Shown: positions 37,122 through 52,880 of the stretch, in pieces
Position numbering within the stretch: position 1 is the stretch's first letter
Layout of the letters: the number at the start of each line of letters is the position of its first letter
Assembly (NCBI GenBank): GCA_018971065.1
Contig: JAGWVC010000003.1
Location: forward strand, 22,791-86,790
DNA length: 64,000 nt
Direction: 5' to 3'
Source of the DNA: Sphingomonadales bacterium
GTDB lineage: Bacteria > Pseudomonadota > Alphaproteobacteria > Sphingomonadales > Sphingomonadaceae
Notes under the pieces: model-generated
Database searches by the model: none
Told to the model about the DNA's origin: nothing
The model's input: the letters and a program-made list of their open reading frames with translations, nothing else
Program-made: the position numbers and the translations under genes

Positions 37122-37820
37122 ATGTCAAGCTGCGAAACCTGCGTCGTCCGTAACCGCGCGATCTGCGCCTCCCTCGACAAGGACGAGCTTGGCGCGCTGA
37201 ACGCCATCGGCCGCCGCCGCACGCTCCACGCCGGCGAATCGCTGATCTGGGAGGGGGAGGATTCGGTCCTCGTCGCCAATGTCATCGAAGGCGTGCTGAA
37301 GCTGTCCACCGGCACCGAGGACGGGCGGGAACAGATCGTCGGCGTCGTCTATCCGTCGGAATTCATCGGTCGCCCGTTCGGCGGCACCACCAGCCACGGC
37401 GTCACCGCGCTCACCGAATCGCGGGTCTGCGTGTTCAGCCGCAGCGATTTCGATGCTTTCGCTCGCGAACATCCCGGCCTTGAGCACAAGCTGCTCGAAC
37501 GCACGCTTTCGGAACTCGATCGCACCCGCCGCTGGATGCTGCTGCTGGGCCGCAAGTCCGCCAGCGAAAAGGTCGCCAGCTTCCTGCTCGAATTGTCCGA
37601 GCGGCTTTCCCCGGCCAATTGCGAAATCCATTTCGAGACCGGCGCCAGGCGCTTCAGCCTGCCGTTCTCGCGCCAGCAGATCGCCGACGTTCTGGGCCTC
37701 ACCATCGAAACCGTCAGCCGCCAGTTCACGCGGCTCAGGTCCGATGGGTTGATCGACCTGCCCTCGCGCCGCGAAGTCACGATCCTGGATCGCGAAGGCC
37801 TGGCCGCCGAAGCCGGCTGA
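37122..37820 (+). CDS. fnr: FNR/FixK-type Crp-family regulator with iron-sulfur cysteines
   Basis: 232 aa. Cys4, Cys7 and Cys14 (SCETCVVRNRAIC) and internal Cys103 (SRVCVFSR) are spaced as for an oxygen-labile [4Fe-4S] cluster. The effector domain has EGVLKLSTGTEDGREQIVGV. The C-terminal helix-turn-helix reads FSRQQIADVLGLTIETVSRQ with the E-SR recognition residues that read TTGAT half-sites. The start at 37122 is the one beginning MSSCETC. It is next to ompW and ccoNOQP, whose shared upstream region has two FNR boxes, so it very likely controls them when oxygen falls. Confidence 0.94.
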   Translation: MSSCETCVVRNRAICASLDKDELGALNAIGRRRTLHAGESLIWEGEDSVLVANVIEGVLKLSTGTEDGREQIVGVVYPSEFIGRPFGGTTSHGVTALTESRVCVFSRSDFDAFAREHPGLEHKLLERTLSELDRTRRWMLLLGRKSASEKVASFLLELSERLSPANCEIHFETGARRFSLPFSRQQIADVLGLTIETVSRQFTRLRSDGLIDLPSRREVTILDREGLAAEAG

Positions 37821-38773: not shown

Positions 38774-38787
38774 TTGATCTCAGTCAA
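38774..38787. promoter_or_regulatory. FNR/FixK box (TTGATCTCAGTCAA)
   Basis: TTGAT-N4-GTCAA matches the symmetric FNR consensus with one base different. It lies in the 521 bp gap between divergent ompW and ccoN, nearer to ompW. A -10 at the class II distance is not obvious on either strand. Confidence 0.7.
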
Positions 38788-39055: not shown

Positions 39056-39069
39056 TTGACCCCAATCAA
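39056..39069 (+). promoter_or_regulatory. FNR/FixK box upstream of ccoN (TTGACCCCAATCAA)
   Basis: TTGAC-N4-ATCAA, one base from the perfect palindrome, centred about 68 bp upstream of the ccoN start codon. It is placed to allow activation of ccoNOQP by the FNR protein encoded at 37122. Confidence 0.75.
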
Positions 39070-39130: not shown

Positions 39131-40774
39131 ATGGTAACGATACTCTCGCGAGCAGGTGCATGGCTCGCGATACTGCTGCTCGCCATCCTTGCGATGGTTG
39201 CCGCGAAGGATGCACCCTTCGCGATCCAGATGGGTACGGTCGCGGTCGCCGCGATCGTCGGCCTCGTCTATTCGGTCCGCTCGCCGAACTACAAGACGGC
39301 GGGCATTCCGGTTCCGGCCGACCAGTCCCGGTACGATGATGATCCGATTCGCTGGGGCGTCATCGCCACGGTGTTCTGGGGCATGGCGGGTTTCCTCGTC
39401 GGCCTGATCATCGCGCTGCAACTGGCCTATCCGCTGCTGAACCTTCAGCCATACCTGAACTTCGGCCGCCTGCGGCCGCTGCACACCTCGGCAGTCATCT
39501 TCGCTTTCGGTGGCAACGCCCTGCTCGCATCCTCGTTCTACGTGGTGCAGCGGACGTGCCGGGCGAGGCTGGCCTTCCCCGGTCTCGCCCGGTTCGTGTT
39601 CTGGGGCTACCAGCTCTTCATCGTGCTCGCCGGCACCGGCTATCTGCTGGGCATCACCCAGGGCAAGGAATACGCCGAGCCCGAATGGTACGTCGATCTC
39701 TGGCTCACCGTGGTCTGGGTCGCCTACCTCGTGGTGTTCGTCGGCACGCTGGTCAAGCGCTCCGAACCGCACATCTACGTGGCCAACTGGTTCTACCTGT
39801 CGTTCATCCTGACGGTGGCGATGCTGCACCTCGTCAACAACGCCGCCATCCCGATCAGCTTCCTGGGCAGCCGCTCGGTCAGCTTCTTCGGCGGCGTGCA
39901 GGGCGCGCTGGTGCAGTGGTGGTACGGCCACAACGCGGTCGGGTTCTTCCTCACCGCCGGCTTCCTGGCGATGATGTACTACTTCGTGCCGAAGCAGGCC
40001 GAACGCCCGGTCTATTCGTATCGCCTGTCGATCATCCACTTCTGGGCGCTGATCTTCCTCTACATCTGGGCAGGTCCGCACCACCTCGAATACACCGCTC
40101 TGCCCGACTGGGCGCAGACGCTGGGCATGGTCTTCTCGGTCATGCTGTGGATGCCGTCGTGGGGCGGCATGATCAACGGCCTGATGACGCTGAACGGCGC
40201 CTGGGACAAGCTGCGCACCGATCCGATCCTGCGCCTCTTCGTCACCTCGATCGCGTTCTACGGGATGAGCACGTTCGAAGGCCCGATGATGTCGATCAAG
40301 TCGGTCAACTCGCTCTCGCACTACACCGACTGGACGATCGGCCACGTGCATTCGGGCGCGCTCGGCTGGAACGGCATGGTCACCTTCGGGATGCTCTACT
40401 ACCTGGCGCCGCGCCTGTGGGGTCGGGAACGCCTCTACAGCCTGCGCATGGTCAACTGGCACTTCTGGACCGCGACGATCGGCATCGTCTTCTATGCCGC
40501 CTCGATGTGGGTTTCGGGCATCACCCAGGGCCTGATGTGGCGTGAATACGGCGCCGACGGCTACCTGGTGAACTCGTTCGCCGACACCGTCGCCGCGCTC
40601 CACCCGTACTTCCTGCTGCGCGCCTTCGGCGGGCTGCTGTACCTGACGGGCGGCGTGTTCATGACCATCAACATCTGGCGGACCATCCTGGGCCACCAGC
40701 GCGACGAAGAGCCGATGTACACGCCGGCCTACGATCCCGCTCGTGACCAGCCGCTGGCCACCACTGCAGCCTGA
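39131..40774 (+). CDS. ccoN: cbb3-type cytochrome c oxidase subunit I
   Basis: 547 aa catalytic subunit with at least twelve membrane helices. Haem and copper ligands are in recognisable contexts: [53 protein letters not shown] and [27 protein letters not shown] ribosome-binding site precedes the ATG. First gene of ccoNOQP. High-affinity oxygen reduction under microaerobic conditions. Confidence 0.98.
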
Positions 40775-47345: not shown

Positions 47346-47381
47346 TGAATGTTGCCCGTTGCGGTGCAATCTCGGCCCATC

Positions 47382-48692
47382 ATGTGGACCTACTACCCCG
47401 AACTGCTGGAACGGCCCGTGCCGCGCTACACCAGCTTTCCCACGGCGGCCGAATTTGGCCCGCTGGGGGCAGAGCCGGTCGAAGCCGCGCTCGCCACCAC
47501 CGAGGGAGAGGTTTCGCTCTACGTCCACATCCCGTTCTGCCAGGAAATCTGCTGGTACTGCGGCTGCAACACCGGCGCTGCCAACAAGCGCAGCCGCCTC
47601 GAATCCTATCTGGAAACGCTGCATCAGGAAATCGCGCTGGTGGCGCGCAAGCTGGGGCGCAAGGCGCATGTCACCCGCGTGGCCTTCGGCGGCGGCAGCC
47701 CGAACGCCATCACCCCCACCGATTTCGTCCGCATCGTCGCCGCGCTCACCGCCTCGTTCCGGCTGGAAGACTCGGTCTGGTCGATCGAGCTTGATCCGCG
47801 CACGCTGCCCGATGTCTGGGGGCCGGTGCTGCGCCATGTCGGCGTCACCCGCGCCAGCATGGGCGTGCAAACCTTCGCGCCGCATCTTCAGGAAGCCATC
47901 GGCCGCGTCCAGCCTGACGACATGATCGTGCGCGGCACCAGGCTGTTGCGCGACGCCGGGGTCGGCTCGATCAACTTCGACCTGATGTACGGTCTCCCCG
48001 GCCAGACCATTGACGATCTTGCCCACAGCCTCGCCCGGACCGTCGAACTGGGTGCCGATCGCATCGCGCTGTTCGGCTATGCCCACGTGCCCGACATGCT
48101 GCCGCGCCAGCGCCGCATCGATGCCACCGCGCTGCCCAGTCAGGCCACCCGCTTCGCGATGGCGGCAATGGGCCACGATTTTCTGGTGGGCCACGGCTAC
48201 GTTCCGGTCGGCTTCGACCATTTCGCGCTGCCGGGGGACGCCATCGCCCGGGCCACGCTCAATGGCACGCTGCGCCGCAACTTCCAGGGCTTCACCGAGG
48301 ATCAGGCCCCGGTGCTGATCGGCATCGGCGCCTCGTCGATCTCGTGCTTCCCCGGCGTGCTGGCGCAGAACGACAAGAACGCGGGCCGCTACCGGATGCT
48401 GCTGTCGCAGGATCGCCTGCCCATCGCCCACGGCATCGAACGCACCGCCGCCGATGCCGAAACCGGCGCCATCATCAACGCCTTGCTGTGCCAGGGCGAA
48501 GCGCGGCTCGATGCCGCCCACGCCCGCGCGATTGCCCCGGCGCTGCAGCCGTTCCTCGATCGCGGCCTCGCCACGCTGGCCGATGACCGCCTGCGCATCC
48601 TTCCCGGCGGCCTGCCTTATGCGCGCACTATTGCCGCGCTGTTCGACCCTTATCGGCAGGTGTCGCAACGCAAGTTCAGCTCGGCGGTCTGA
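47382..48692 (+). CDS. hemN: Oxygen-independent coproporphyrinogen III oxidase (radical SAM)
   Basis: 436 aa. The radical-SAM cluster motif C53-x3-C57-x2-C60 (PFCQEICWYCGCN), then RVAFGGGSPNAI, SMGVQTF and FDLMYGLPGQT identify HemN and not the HemW paralogue. The start MWTYYPELLERPVPRYTSFP at 47382 is family-typical. It makes protoporphyrinogen for haem without oxygen and is logically grouped with cbb3 oxidase genes and FNR. No FNR box was found immediately upstream. Confidence 0.95.
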   Translation: MWTYYPELLERPVPRYTSFPTAAEFGPLGAEPVEAALATTEGEVSLYVHIPFCQEICWYCGCNTGAANKRSRLESYLETLHQEIALVARKLGRKAHVTRVAFGGGSPNAITPTDFVRIVAALTASFRLEDSVWSIELDPRTLPDVWGPVLRHVGVTRASMGVQTFAPHLQEAIGRVQPDDMIVRGTRLLRDAGVGSINFDLMYGLPGQTIDDLAHSLARTVELGADRIALFGYAHVPDMLPRQRRIDATALPSQATRFAMAAMGHDFLVGHGYVPVGFDHFALPGDAIARATLNGTLRRNFQGFTEDQAPVLIGIGASSISCFPGVLAQNDKNAGRYRMLLSQDRLPIAHGIERTAADAETGAIINALLCQGEARLDAAHARAIAPALQPFLDRGLATLADDRLRILPGGLPYARTIAALFDPYRQVSQRKFSSAV

Positions 48693-48759: not shown

Positions 48760-48800
48760 AAAAAAATGAGCGGCCGTTTTCCGAAGAAAGCTGACCGCTC
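48760..48800 (-). terminator. Rho-independent terminator of the candidate small RNA
   Basis: Reading the minus strand: GAGCGG (48800-48795), an internal TTTC-TTCG-GAAA stem with a stable tetraloop, CCGCTC (48773-48768), then A and seven T (48766-48760). It has the strong stem and U-run form and points away from dsbD. Confidence 0.8.
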
Positions 48801-48932
48801 CAGGTGGGGAGAAAGCAAGAAACCAAAGCAGGACTGGATCGACCAGCCCGAAAATCCGGGTGCGGTGAGGGGGTGAACCCTCACCGCGGCCGGTGGGAAA
48901 GACCCCCCACGGGCAGTCCCACCAAGCTTGAC
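48760..48932 (-). ncRNA. Candidate FNR-activated small RNA
   Basis: The minus strand of this 317 bp gap has a complete transcription unit without a credible reading frame. An FNR box at 48965-48978 is centred about 41 bp upstream of a start predicted from a -10-like CCTAAA (48944-48939). The RNA, about 170 nt, contains a perfect 10-bp hairpin (GCGGTGAGGG/CCCTCACCGC, 48854-48879), further stems (GTGGG/CCCAC; CCCGGATTTTCGGG) and a terminator ending at 48760. Unpaired C-rich stretches (TCTCCCCACC) could pair with ribosome-binding sites. The rest of the gap toward hemN shows nothing. Existence is inferred, not observed. Confidence 0.6.
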
Positions 48933-48964
48933 TTCGGGTTTAGGACGCGCTTTCCCGTTCCACC

Positions 48965-48978
48965 TTGATCGGCGTCAA
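48965..48978 (-). promoter_or_regulatory. FNR/FixK box (TTGATCGGCGTCAA) with class II promoter geometry
   Basis: TTGAT-N4-GTCAA. On the minus strand a CCTAAA -10-like element lies at 48944-48939, giving a start near 48930-48932, which puts the box centre at about -41. No protein-coding gene on either strand starts downstream of it, only the candidate small RNA. Confidence 0.7.
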
Positions 48979-49009: not shown

Positions 49010-51094
49010 TTACCGCGAAGCCTTCGCCAGCCCGGGCAAAAGCTCGGGCCTCAGCACTTGCGGCAGCACCTGTTCCGCACCGCCGCCCGCCGGATACCAC
49101 AGGTACAGCGGCACCCCCGCCGCGCCATGCGCGGTCAGCGTCCGCGTGATCGCCGGATCGCGCCGCGTCCAGTCGCCGCGCAGCACCGTCACCCCGGCCT
49201 TGGCGAATGCGGCCCGTGTCGCCTCGGTCTCGATTGCCACGTTCTCGTTCACCTTGCAGGTCAGGCACCAGTCGGCGGTGAAATAGGCGAACACCGGCCC
49301 CCGCTTGCGCGCTTCCGGCAGGCCTGCCTCGGACCAGGGCTTCGCGTCCAGCATCCCGGCGGATTCGCGCGTCGGCTCCCCCTTGAAATGTGGCAACACC
49401 CCGGCCGCCACCGCCACCAGCGCCGCCGTTGCCAGCGCAAACCGCCCGGCTGCCCGGCCGGCGCGCTGCGCATGCCCGATCCCCGCCAGCACCGCCAGAA
49501 GGCCCAGCGTCACCACCCCCGCCGCCAGCGCGAACGGCCACCCCGCCAGCCGGCTCGCCAGCCACAGCAGGGCCAGCGCGGTCAGCGCCATCGGTACCGC
49601 CATCACCCGCCGGAACGTGTTCATCCACGCCCCCGGCTTCGGCAGCATCCGCCGCAGCGCCGGCACGAACGCCAGCGCCAGGAACGGCAGCGCGATCCCC
49701 AGCCCCAGCGTCGCGAACAGGGCCAGCGCCGCCGCCACCGGCAACAACAATGCCGCGCCCATCGCCGCCGCCATGAACGGCCCGGTGCAGGGCGTCGCCA
49801 CGAACGCGGCCAGCAACCCGGTCAGGAACGCCCCCGCCGCGCCGTGGTTTGGCGAAGCCCCCCGTGTAACGAACCCCGGCACCGCGAACTCGAACACCCC
49901 GGCCAGGTTGGCGGTGATCGCCGCCGCCAGCGCCAGCAGCCCGGCCACCACCAGCGGCTCCTGCAACTGGAAGGCCCAGCCCACCTGCTCGCCCGCCGCG
50001 CGCAGCGACAGCATTACCGCGCCCAGCCCCAGGCAGGCGATGATGACGCCCGCCGCATAGGCCACGCCTTCCACCCGCGCGCCCTTCGCGCTTTCGCCCG
50101 CGCGCACCAGGCTCAGCGCCTTCAGGCTCAGGATCGGGAACACGCAAGGCATCACGTTCAGCAGCAAACCGCCGGCCAGCGCCGCCAGCAGCAGCCAGGG
50201 CAGGCTCCGCGCCCCGTCGCCACCGATCGCCTCGCCGCCCTCGGGCACCACCCCCGGCACCGCGCGCAGTTCCAGCCCGTCACCCGCCCGGTTCAGCCGC
50301 AGCACCGCCGGAATCGCCCCGGGAACCACCGGCAAGGCCGTCGCCCGGTCCAGCGTCACCAGCAGCAGATCGCCCTTGCGCGCGAACACCTGCCTGCCCG
50401 CATAAGCCACCACCCGGTCGGCGCCCACGAACACATGCGGGTCCTCCAGCGCCACGCTGGCCGGCAACGGTATCGCCAGCCGCACCGCCTTGCCCGCCAT
50501 CGCGAACGTCGCCGCGCCGCCCAGCGGCGCCGGCAGCTTCATCCGCCAGCCATCGAACCGCGCATCCCCCGGCCCGCCGCCCACCCGCACCACCGTCTGC
50601 AATCGCGCCTTCTCGGGCACGCAGATCGCATCGGTGCAGGCCAGCCAGCTCGCCTCCACCGCCACCGGCAGCATTGCCCCCGGCGCGGCATCCTTCGGCA
50701 CCGTCAGCGGCACCAGCACCGCATAGTCATGCTCATAGACATGGTTCATCAGCCCGGCGATCGTCAGCGTCTCGGGCACCGGATAGCGCAGCGCCCCCAC
50801 GCTCGTCCCCGCTGGCAGTTCCCATTTCAGCGTCATGCCGAACCCGGCATCGCCGGGGTTCAGCCAGTAACCGTGCCAGCCCGGCGCGGGCTGCATCGCG
50901 ATCGCCAGTTCCACCGTCCCGCCCGGTGCCGCCGCCCGTTCAGCCACCAGTTCGGCGGCGATATGGTTCGCCGCGCCCACCGTCTCCGCGCGCGCACTGG
51001 CGGCAAACAGCGCGAATCCCATGCACAGCGCTTGCAACCAGACGGCAACAACGCGCAGATAGGGCAGCGAACAGAAACGCGTCGATGCAGCCAT
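49010..51094 (-). CDS. DsbD/ScsB-like thiol:disulfide interchange protein
   Basis: 694 aa. A signal peptide (VVAVWLQALCMGFALFAASA), a periplasmic N-terminal domain (about 40-300) with the pair C...C in EASWLACTDAICVPEK, eight or so transmembrane helices starting LLLAALAGGLLLNVMPCVFP with the second membrane cysteine in FVATPCTGPFM, and a C-terminal thioredoxin domain with CxxC in FTADWCLTCKVNE. It transfers reducing power from cytoplasmic thioredoxin to the periplasm. The start at 51094 avoids a long Arg-rich leader. Domain order suggests the ScsB branch; c-type cytochrome maturation may depend on it. Confidence 0.9.
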   Translation of the reverse strand: MAASTRFCSLPYLRVVAVWLQALCMGFALFAASARAETVGAANHIAAELVAERAAAPGGTVELAIAMQPAPGWHGYWLNPGDAGFGMTLKWELPAGTSVGALRYPVPETLTIAGLMNHVYEHDYAVLVPLTVPKDAAPGAMLPVAVEASWLACTDAICVPEKARLQTVVRVGGGPGDARFDGWRMKLPAPLGGAATFAMAGKAVRLAIPLPASVALEDPHVFVGADRVVAYAGRQVFARKGDLLLVTLDRATALPVVPGAIPAVLRLNRAGDGLELRAVPGVVPEGGEAIGGDGARSLPWLLLAALAGGLLLNVMPCVFPILSLKALSLVRAGESAKGARVEGVAYAAGVIIACLGLGAVMLSLRAAGEQVGWAFQLQEPLVVAGLLALAAAITANLAGVFEFAVPGFVTRGASPNHGAAGAFLTGLLAAFVATPCTGPFMAAAMGAALLLPVAAALALFATLGLGIALPFLALAFVPALRRMLPKPGAWMNTFRRVMAVPMALTALALLWLASRLAGWPFALAAGVVTLGLLAVLAGIGHAQRAGRAAGRFALATAALVAVAAGVLPHFKGEPTRESAGMLDAKPWSEAGLPEARKRGPVFAYFTADWCLTCKVNENVAIETEATRAAFAKAGVTVLRGDWTRRDPAITRTLTAHGAAGVPLYLWYPAGGGAEQVLPQVLRPELLPGLAKASR

Positions 51095-51179
51095 GAAAGT
51101 CTCGCCGGGCGGGGGAGGGGCATCGCGCGCGCCAACCCATCCCGTGGCATGTGCCGCCGAACCGAAGGATTTGCAAGGA

Positions 51180-52880
51180 ATGCCCCGCTTCTCCCTCCTG
51201 CTTCCCCTTGCTCTCGCCTTCGCCCAGCCCGCGCTTGCCGACACCCCACCACCCGCGCCGCAACCGCCGAAACTCGTCGTCGCCATCGCCGTCGATCAGT
51301 TTGCCGCCGATCTCTACGCGCAATACCGCCAGCACTTCACCGGCGGCTTCGCCCGGCTGGAACAGGGCGCGGTCTTCCCCAGCGCCTTCCAGAGCCACGC
51401 CGCTACCGAAACCTGCCCCGGCCACTCCACCATCCTCACCGGCGTCCACCCGGCGCGCAGCGGCATCATCGCCAACAACTGGTATGATCCCACCCTCGCC
51501 CGCGACGACAAGAAGGTCTATTGCGCCGAGGACGAGAGCGACGCCAATTCCACGCCGAAGGAGCCGGTGGTCTCGGCAGTGCATCTGCGCGTGCCGACGC
51601 TGGGCGAACGGATGAAGGCCGCCTGGCCGCAGTCGCGCAACGTCGCCGTTTCGGGCAAGGATCGCGCGGCGATGATGATGGGCGGCCACGTCATCGACGA
51701 GGGCTACTGGTGGCAGGGCCGGGGCTTCTCCACGCTCAACGGCCGCAGCCTCGCGCCCGAGGTGCTGGCCGAGAACGGCACGATCCTGGCCGCGCTGGCC
51801 AAGGGCGCACCGGGCTATGCGGTGCCCGCCTGGTGCGCCGCGCGCGCCCGCACGATCCACGCCGGCCCGGCCGACGCGGGCGTCGACGTGGGCGGCGGCC
51901 GTTTCGCACTCGAAGCCGACCAGCCCGACAGCTTTCGCGTCTCCCCGCGACTCGATGCCGCCGTGCTCGACATCGCCACCCGCCTTGCCGCCACGATGAA
52001 GCTGGGCAAGGGGCAGGCGCCCGACCTGCTGTCGATCAGCCTTTCGGCCACCGACTATGTCGGCCATGCCTATGGCCACCAGGGGCAGGAGATGTGCATC
52101 CAGATGGCGCAGCTCGATGCCGCGCTCGGCGCCTTTTTCGCCCGGATCGACGCGCTTGGCGTCGATTACGTGGTGGTGCTGACCGCCGATCACGGTGGCC
52201 TCGACGTGCCCGAGCGTCTGGCCCAGCAAGGGCTGCCCGCCGCCACCCGCGCCACCGCCGAACTCACCGCGCCCGAACTCAGCCAGCGCATCGCCACCGC
52301 GCTGGGGTTGCGCGCCTTCATCGACTCCCGGCCCGATCGCACCGCCGCTTTCCCGCCGCCGCCGCCGGCGCTGATCTTCGGCGAAAGCGCCTTCGGGGAC
52401 TACTACGTCACCCGCGATCTTCCTGCCGATACCCGCGCCAGGGTCGTGGCGATGCTGGCCGATACCTTGCGCGCCAGCCCGCAGGTGGCGCTGGTGCTGA
52501 CCCGAGAAGAGCTGATGAAGACGCCGCTGCCGGCTGGTTCGCCGCAGGAATGGAGCCTGCGCGAACGCGCCCGCACCTCGTTCGATCCGCAACGCTCGGG
52601 CGACATCGTCTCGCTGCTCAACCGCGCGGTGGTGCCGGTGGTGGCCCCCGCTGCCGGTTATACCGCCACGCACGGCAGCCCGTGGGATTATGACCGCCGC
52701 GTGCCGCTGCTGTTCTGGCGGCGCGGCATCGCCGGTTTCGAGCAGCCCGCGCCGGTCGAAACCGTCGACATCGCTCCCACCCTTGCCGCGCTGATCGGCC
52801 TGAAGGTGCCCGATGGCGCGTTCGACGGCCGCTGCCTCGACATCGACGGCGGTGCCGCTAATAGCTGCGCGGGCAGGTAG
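51180..52880 (+). CDS. Secreted alkaline phosphatase, PafA/SPAP-type (alkaline phosphatase superfamily)
   Basis: 566 aa. A signal peptide (MPRFSLLLPLALAFAQPALA) is followed by metal ligand D39 (AIAVDQF), the nucleophile threonine T78 in TETCPGHSTIL, SLSATDYVGHAYGH and TADHGGLDVPE, the remaining zinc ligands. The threonine nucleophile and these contexts match the Sphingomonas phosphatase SPAP and PafA. It hydrolyses a wide range of phosphomonoesters in the periplasm. AAGGA precedes the ATG. No PHO box was recognised in the 85 bp upstream gap. Confidence 0.93.
   Translation: MPRFSLLLPLALAFAQPALADTPPPAPQPPKLVVAIAVDQFAADLYAQYRQHFTGGFARLEQGAVFPSAFQSHAATETCPGHSTILTGVHPARSGIIANNWYDPTLARDDKKVYCAEDESDANSTPKEPVVSAVHLRVPTLGERMKAAWPQSRNVAVSGKDRAAMMMGGHVIDEGYWWQGRGFSTLNGRSLAPEVLAENGTILAALAKGAPGYAVPAWCAARARTIHAGPADAGVDVGGGRFALEADQPDSFRVSPRLDAAVLDIATRLAATMKLGKGQAPDLLSISLSATDYVGHAYGHQGQEMCIQMAQLDAALGAFFARIDALGVDYVVVLTADHGGLDVPERLAQQGLPAATRATAELTAPELSQRIATALGLRAFIDSRPDRTAAFPPPPPALIFGESAFGDYYVTRDLPADTRARVVAMLADTLRASPQVALVLTREELMKTPLPAGSPQEWSLRERARTSFDPQRSGDIVSLLNRAVVPVVAPAAGYTATHGSPWDYDRRVPLLFWRRGIAGFEQPAPVETVDIAPTLAALIGLKVPDGAFDGRCLDIDGGAANSCAGR

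What the first reader, a model, noticed from the sequence alone, without database searches (positions are those of the whole stretch)
48760..48978. Candidate FNR-activated small RNA downstream of hemN
In the hemN to dsbD gap the minus strand carries an FNR box (TTGATCGGCGTCAA), a -10-like CCTAAA at the spacing of an FNR class II promoter (start about 48931), roughly 170 nt of strongly structured sequence with a perfect 10-bp hairpin, and a terminator with a UUCG tetraloop and seven T. No protein gene can use this FNR box. The RNA has C-rich unpaired segments (TCTCCCCACC) suited to pairing with ribosome-binding sites. It would be an analogue, not necessarily a homologue, of FnrS, acting as the repressing arm of the low-oxygen response encoded next door.
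Basis: partly seen in the sequence, partly recalled or inferred. Interest (0 to 1): 0.78.

Follow-up and report, generated by a model that had tools for sequence, protein, structure and literature searches.

The report
Low-oxygen-switched small RNA in Novosphingobium
Next to the low-oxygen respiration genes of a sphingomonad bacterium sits a small regulatory RNA gene with a switch for the oxygen sensor FNR; switch, RNA shape and probable pairing segment recur in many Novosphingobium genomes, so it looks like a real, so far undescribed regulator of the low-oxygen response.

Summary
The finding holds up. On the minus strand between hemN and dsbD lie a perfect FNR box (48965-48978), a -10 element, a structured RNA (predicted 48930-48760) and a terminator. 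Of 80 hemN loci from other genomes, 23 have an FNR box within 900 bp of hemN; in all 23 it is followed by the same module: hairpin region, seed UUCUCCC(C/G), G+C-rich stem and T-rich tail. A covariance model of seed plus terminator, without promoter, hits 32 of 41 genomes of the genus; 28 of 31 hits inspected have the box upstream, 18 of 21 among sequences not already held. In 54 of 56 promoters an A sits 30.5 bp behind the box centre, i.e. at -11 of a class II FNR promoter. Hairpins covary in the two subtypes tested. The copies mostly stay near fnr, cco or hemN, in one clade directly upstream of fnr. No Rfam family matches the window copy; separate alphaR8/suhB genes exist in the same genomes. 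Best reading: a lineage-specific trans-acting sRNA switched on by FNR that blocks ribosome-binding sites, a functional analogue of FnrS. Expression and targets are untested.

The parts
48965..48978 (-). FNR box TTGACGCCGATCAA, centred at -41.5 from the predicted start
   Evidence: same position relative to the -10 A in 54 of 56 promoters
48937..48942 (-). -10 element TAAACC; conserved A(-11) at 48941
48760..48930 (-). predicted small RNA, 171 nt, from class II start to end of the T run
48862..48887 (-). perfect 10-bp hairpin in the 5' part of this copy
48802..48813 (-). conserved seed TTCTCCCCACCT, complementary to Shine-Dalgarno-like GGGGAGA
   Evidence: alignment A1
48760..48800 (-). Rho-independent terminator, UUCG loop, seven T
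   Evidence: not listed by the simple scan
47349..48692 (+). hemN, convergent neighbour
   Evidence: Radical_SAM; TIGR00538 322.2 bits, just under its cut-off 324.95
49010..51286 (-). dsbD, same strand, ends 31 bp upstream of the box
   Evidence: DsbD_N, DsbD_TM, Thioredoxin_7; NCBIfam DsbD under cut-off
37122..37820 (+). fnr (FnrL-like), the likely activator, about 11 kb away
   Evidence: (FnrL model 239 bits, under its cut-off 300)
39131..40774 (+). ccoN of the cbb3 oxidase cluster that runs up to hemN; FNR box at 39056
   Evidence: TIGR00780 over cut-off

Best explanation
A stand-alone small RNA gene of the Novosphingobium lineage. When oxygen falls, FNR (encoded in the same region) binds the box at -41.5 and activates transcription at 48930 from a class II promoter (promoter geometry shown by conservation; binding inferred). 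Transcription stops at the terminator at 48760, giving an RNA built as 5' hairpin part, C-rich seed UUCUCCCCAMCU and terminator hairpin with U tail (supported by conservation and covariation in relatives). The RNA probably uses the seed, likely with Hfq, to pair with Shine-Dalgarno-like GGGGAGA segments and lower translation of mRNAs not wanted at low oxygen, while FNR raises cco and hemN (inferred).
For: 23 of 23 hemN loci with an FNR box within 900 bp carry the module. R1 holds no promoter sequence, yet 18 of 21 hits in sequences not already held have TTGA-N6-TCAA within 200 nt upstream (17 of 20 if the one whose seed also occurs in the training alignment is dropped), against a rate of 0.0067 per 136 nt in the hemN loci. 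A at -11 in 54 of 56 promoters, 43 of 45 after thinning to below 70% identity. The same box consensus, mostly at about -41.5, was derived from transcriptomes of fnr mutants in the sphingomonad Sphingopyxis granuli (PMC7713065, passages). Covariation: 6 pairs with both sides changed in 20 type A RNAs, 0 of 500 shuffles as many; 8 pairs in 11 fnr-linked RNAs, 2 of 500. The predicted start falls at or near the base of the 5' hairpin in type A and fnr-linked RNAs. 66 of 77 box-bearing locus entries (some of the same genome) have hemN, dsbD, fnr, ompW or a cco gene within 3.5 kb.
Against: No transcript data were available. The window's 5' part differs from its relatives and may pair with part of the seed; window-type copies were not tested for covariation. 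The terminator scan missed the terminator. No orthologous target recurs among exact seed complements. Of 37 seed-plus-T sites in the 80 hemN loci 8 lack the box, and R1 also hits modules without a box behind ligB and other genes, so the module is not always FNR-driven.
Confidence: 0.85

Rival explanations
1. Promoter and terminator are real but the RNA works in cis: in the fnr-linked copies the terminated RNA is the 5' leader of fnr and tunes FNR autoregulation; elsewhere it is a relocated relic.
For: In 13 of the 77 box-bearing locus entries fnr follows on the same strand, its match starting 76-175 nt from the seed; in the nine such loci measured the first candidate FNR start codon lies 10-90 nt behind the T run.
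Against: In the layouts convergent with hemN, as in the window, what follows the terminator on that strand is hemN in antisense, yet box, seed and terminator are conserved there.
Confidence: 0.07
2. Member of the alphaR8 (suhB/MmgR/SisA) sRNA family that has acquired an FNR promoter.
For: Same architecture; weak suhB matches for L036 and L023 (28.4 and 27.6 bits); R1 in turn gives weak hits (27-29.5 bits) on alphaR8 copies over the cut-off in G003, G008 and G030; sphingomonad alphaR8 copies read CCUCUCCCAAAACUU, not far from UUCUCCCCAACUU.
Against: Below the 41-bit cut-off in L036 and L023, and the family is not among the matches listed for the window; alphaR8 copies over the cut-off lie at other places in 16 of 16 genomes searched; core differs from UUUCCUCCCU (PMC12559287, passages); an FNR-like box near 1 of 12 alphaR8 copies checked, with T instead of A at -11.
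Confidence: 0.15
3. The box serves dsbD, hemN or a small peptide gene; the structured segment is just dsbD/hemN 3' UTR and terminator.
For: The segment lies between two convergent genes; short ORFs exist on the minus strand.
Against: The box is behind dsbD, not in front; A(-11) points to the sRNA; the minus-strand ORFs of 58 and 60 aa run through the terminator; the module keeps its box with other neighbours.
Confidence: 0.03

Closest known systems
FnrS (E. coli), FNR-activated sRNA
   Same: FNR-controlled sRNA; FnrS represses genes dispensable without oxygen (PMC8139620, passages), as is expected here
   Different: No match of the window copy to any Rfam family over its cut-off; different neighbours and lineage; the two sequences were not aligned directly
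alphaR8 / suhB / MmgR / SisA-D (RF00519)
   Same: 5' hairpin, C-rich anti-Shine-Dalgarno seed, terminator; alphaproteobacterial; SisA represses TonB-dependent receptors (PMC12559287, passages)
   Different: Different core, below the Rfam cut-off, separate loci in the same genomes, FNR promoter, hemN/fnr neighbourhood
PcrZ (Rhodobacter sphaeroides)
   Same: Low-oxygen sRNA of an alphaproteobacterium dependent on PrrA and FnrL (PMC8139620, passages)
   Different: FnrL control of PcrZ may be indirect, PrrA has the consensus site; here a class II FNR site is conserved. PcrZ sequence was not compared

Membership tests
FNR-activated trans sRNA (functional kind) | FNR site at class II position of its own promoter | tested here: met
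   (by sequence; binding not shown)
FNR-activated trans sRNA (functional kind) | Stand-alone RNA ended by an intrinsic terminator | tested here: met
   by prediction; in the fnr-linked copies fnr follows closely
FNR-activated trans sRNA (functional kind) | No conserved ORF | tested here: inconclusive
   window ORFs run through the terminator; relatives were not scanned for ORFs
FNR-activated trans sRNA (functional kind) | Low-oxygen, FNR-dependent expression | not testable with these tools
   needs RNA-seq or Northern blot
FNR-activated trans sRNA (functional kind) | Represses mRNAs by pairing | tested here: inconclusive
   seed complements near start codons exist, no orthologous recurrence seen
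FnrS (sequence family) | Covariance match in Rfam | tested here: not met
   searches list no FnrS match (that Rfam holds an FnrS family is recalled)
alphaR8 / suhB RF00519 | Score over gathering cut-off (41 bits) | tested here: not met
   not listed for the window; 28.4 and 27.6 bits in two of five relatives scanned
alphaR8 / suhB RF00519 | Core UUUCCUCCCU | tested here: not met
   note that sphingomonad copies over the cut-off read CCUCUCCCAAAACUU, so the core varies
alphaR8 / suhB RF00519 | Hairpin, single-stranded C-rich seed, terminator | tested here: met
   seed partly paired in the window copy
alphaR8 / suhB RF00519 | Next to an N-formylglutamate amidohydrolase gene (most species) | tested here: not met
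   window neighbours are hemN and dsbD; relatives checked only for the genes listed

The most novel reading that the evidence does not exclude
A directly FNR-activated sRNA family of Alphaproteobacteria whose gene doubles, in one Novosphingobium clade, as the terminated leader of fnr itself, and whose seed converges on the Shine-Dalgarno targets (such as TonB-dependent receptors) of the alphaR8 RNAs found in the same genomes, so that low oxygen adds a second set of anti-SD RNAs to the same outer-membrane regulon.
Probability: 0.2. Interest if true: 0.78.

Novelty: new member of a known kind. Interest (0 to 1): 0.62.

Why it matters
Novosphingobium and other sphingomonads are known as aerobic pollutant degraders (recalled). 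My nine literature searches (listings only, capped) showed no title or abstract describing this RNA; published sRNA catalogues for Zymomonas and Paracoccus appeared in the listings and were not opened. If true, this is a conserved sRNA under direct FNR control in Alphaproteobacteria, with a defined promoter, seed and neighbourhood, ready for deletion and target tests, and a second use of the FnrS strategy with a different RNA.

Tried and rejected
Rfam on 9 kb, on 301 bases and on five relatives: only sub-threshold matches at the candidate. Target search: TGGGGAGAA-N3-11-ATG in 12 genomes gave 31 sites against 2 for the reversed pattern; TGGGGAGA-N3-10-ATG in 4 genomes gave 41 against 9, 7 of the 41 being one repeated site before what reads as a transposase in G016. 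The control is weak because GGAG is itself SD-like. By my reading of the translations 4 of 37 listed ORFs (L179, L184, L203, L211) are TonB-dependent receptors and no orthologue recurs; not checked with Pfam, and sites without a locus were not read. Kept as a lead only. Spread: 249 family genomes under strict filters gave 11 with a hit at 1e-5, of whose loci 5 have a box; 37 of the same genomes plus G021, re-scored with looser filters at 1e-4, gave 2 of 38, neither with a box; a class sample gave 2 of 40, one of them G003 itself, the other without a box. So the RNA looks confined to Novosphingobium and near kin. In 30 chosen genomes, 20 of them with a locus used to build R1, 29 had a match at 0.01, which includes noise. 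Small-peptide, dsbD and hemN readings were rejected (see rivals).

Full report
WHAT IS THERE. The window is from a sphingomonad by its best HemN relatives; no whole genome is held for it. The neighbourhood runs fnr (+), ompW (-), ccoN-O-P-G-H-I-S (+), hemN (+), the candidate (-), dsbD (-) (ccoO, ccoP, ccoH, ccoI and ccoS named by my reading of the translations). Perfect FNR boxes also lie at 38774 and 39056 between ompW and ccoN. The finding's box, -10, hairpins and terminator are all present; I move the start by one base to 48930, because a class II site centred at -41.5 places the conserved A(-11) at 48941. The segment 48757-48931 folds better than all 200 shuffles (z -3.69).

CONSERVATION BY POSITION. 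HemN was used to collect 80 loci, by their titles mostly Novosphingobium and Erythrobacteraceae. 23 of 80 have TTGA-N6-TCAA within 900 bp downstream of hemN (four loci end sooner), and all 23 carry, on one strand behind the box, TTCTCCC[CG], a G+C-rich stem and a T-rich tail (the tail of L042 is weak, TCTTT). Further copies lie 1.1 kb (L036) and about 4 kb (L011, L016, L017, L018, L027, L035) behind hemN, each with a box. In L030 the box has one mismatch, and L002 has two copies without a box. Over the 80 loci 29 of 37 seed-plus-T sites have a box within 200 nt.

CONSERVATION BY CONTENT. A covariance model of seed and terminator alone (R1, 57 positions, 32 sequences) was run on genomes. Of 41 genomes in the genus group of G003 (Novosphingobium sediminicola by the title of L003) 32 have a match at 1e-4, 33 hits. 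Of these 31 were inspected: 28 have the box upstream; two were not fetched. Some of these genomes had supplied loci to R1 or were already held; of the 21 hits whose sequence was not already held 18 have the box, and of the 20 of these whose seed is not in the training alignment 17 have it. The three without are L139, L142 and L143, whose upstream coding tails resemble that of ligB in L086. The background rate of the box in the hemN loci is 49 in 990 kb, true ones included. In wider samples hits are rare: 11 of 249 (5 with a box), 2 of 38 of largely the same genomes (none), 2 of 40 across the class (one of them G003).

PROMOTER. In 56 distinct box-plus-seed promoters lined up on the box, by far the strongest signal away from the box is an A at box centre +30.5 in 54 of 56 (exceptions L008 and L125), with A two bases on in 34 of 56. 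After thinning to below 70% identity it is 43 of 45. That is -11 of a promoter whose activator sits at -41.5. Sphingopyxis granuli FNR boxes have the same consensus and mostly that position (PMC7713065, passages).

RNA. Starting each RNA at the predicted +1 gives 54 distinct RNAs of 66-171 nt. Ten relatives folded have z from -2.4 to -6.7, with 0 to 5 of 200 shuffles as good. Type A (20 rows) has 97.4% of cells paired and 6 pairs with double changes, 0 of 500 shuffles as high; slid structures pair 38-61%. The fnr-linked type (11 rows) has 92.4% paired and 8 pairs with double changes, 2 of 500 shuffles as high, though further pair types are reached by 23 of 500. These structures were derived from the same alignments, which favours them. 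The window copy and its convergent kin were not in those two sets; the window's 5' part is longer and differs.

NEIGHBOURHOOD. Layouts: convergent with hemN and downstream of dsbD (as in the window); beyond hemN and a small opposite ORF, which I took for PilZ-like although Pfam matches nothing; directly upstream of fnr on the same strand (13 entries). 66 of 77 box-bearing entries (several from the same genome) have a query gene within 3.5 kb; the other 11 are the 4-kb copies and their duplicates, L135 near a contig end, and L129, which may be a chance hit.

MECHANISM. Supported by comparison: gene structure, promoter geometry, conserved seed. Inferred: FNR binding, low-oxygen expression, Hfq, repression by pairing with SD-like GGGGAGA. 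Target searches were inconclusive; TonB-dependent receptors are a lead and are also targets of the alphaR8 RNA SisA in Caulobacter (PMC12559287, passages).

COMPARISON. Works like FnrS; no Rfam match. Resembles alphaR8 in architecture but misses its cut-off and core, and the same genomes hold separate alphaR8 genes, while the two models cross-hit weakly. PcrZ depends on FnrL perhaps indirectly (PMC8139620, passages). MmgR was seen in passages of PMC8401924.

VERDICT. A real, lineage-specific sRNA gene under direct FNR control is very likely, and I found no description of it; its targets are open.

Noticed in passing
L002, L086, L110, L139, L142, L143, L105: A seed-terminator module like this one occurs without an FNR box, directly behind what reads as ligB (protocatechuate 4,5-dioxygenase) in L086 and L105, and behind similar coding tails in L139, L142 and L143 (L105 with a variant seed): possibly a 3'UTR-derived sibling RNA. 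L110, the other L002 copy, also lacks a box; its upstream gene was not read.
   Followed up: partly
L098-L101, L125, L148-L150, L152-L156: The sRNA gene sits immediately upstream of fnr on the same strand, so FNR could activate its own gene through terminator read-through.
   Followed up: partly
L003, L004, L154, L155: Just behind the FNR box the DNA reads GGTGGGGAG, in L154 GGTGGGGAGAA, the complement of the RNA's own seed region, but upstream of the predicted start.
   Followed up: no
L106, L107, L130, L131, L132, L212: Weak R1 hits share another core around GUUCUCGACUU or variants before a similar terminator and lack an FNR box: possibly another sphingomonad sRNA family.
   Followed up: no
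window 38774-38787 and 39056-39069: Two further perfect FNR boxes between ompW and ccoN, the second about 75 bp before the ccoN start codon.
   Followed up: no
L120:1378-1391: One alphaR8 copy has an FNR-like box 123 nt upstream of its match, but T instead of A at -11; probably chance.
   Followed up: yes
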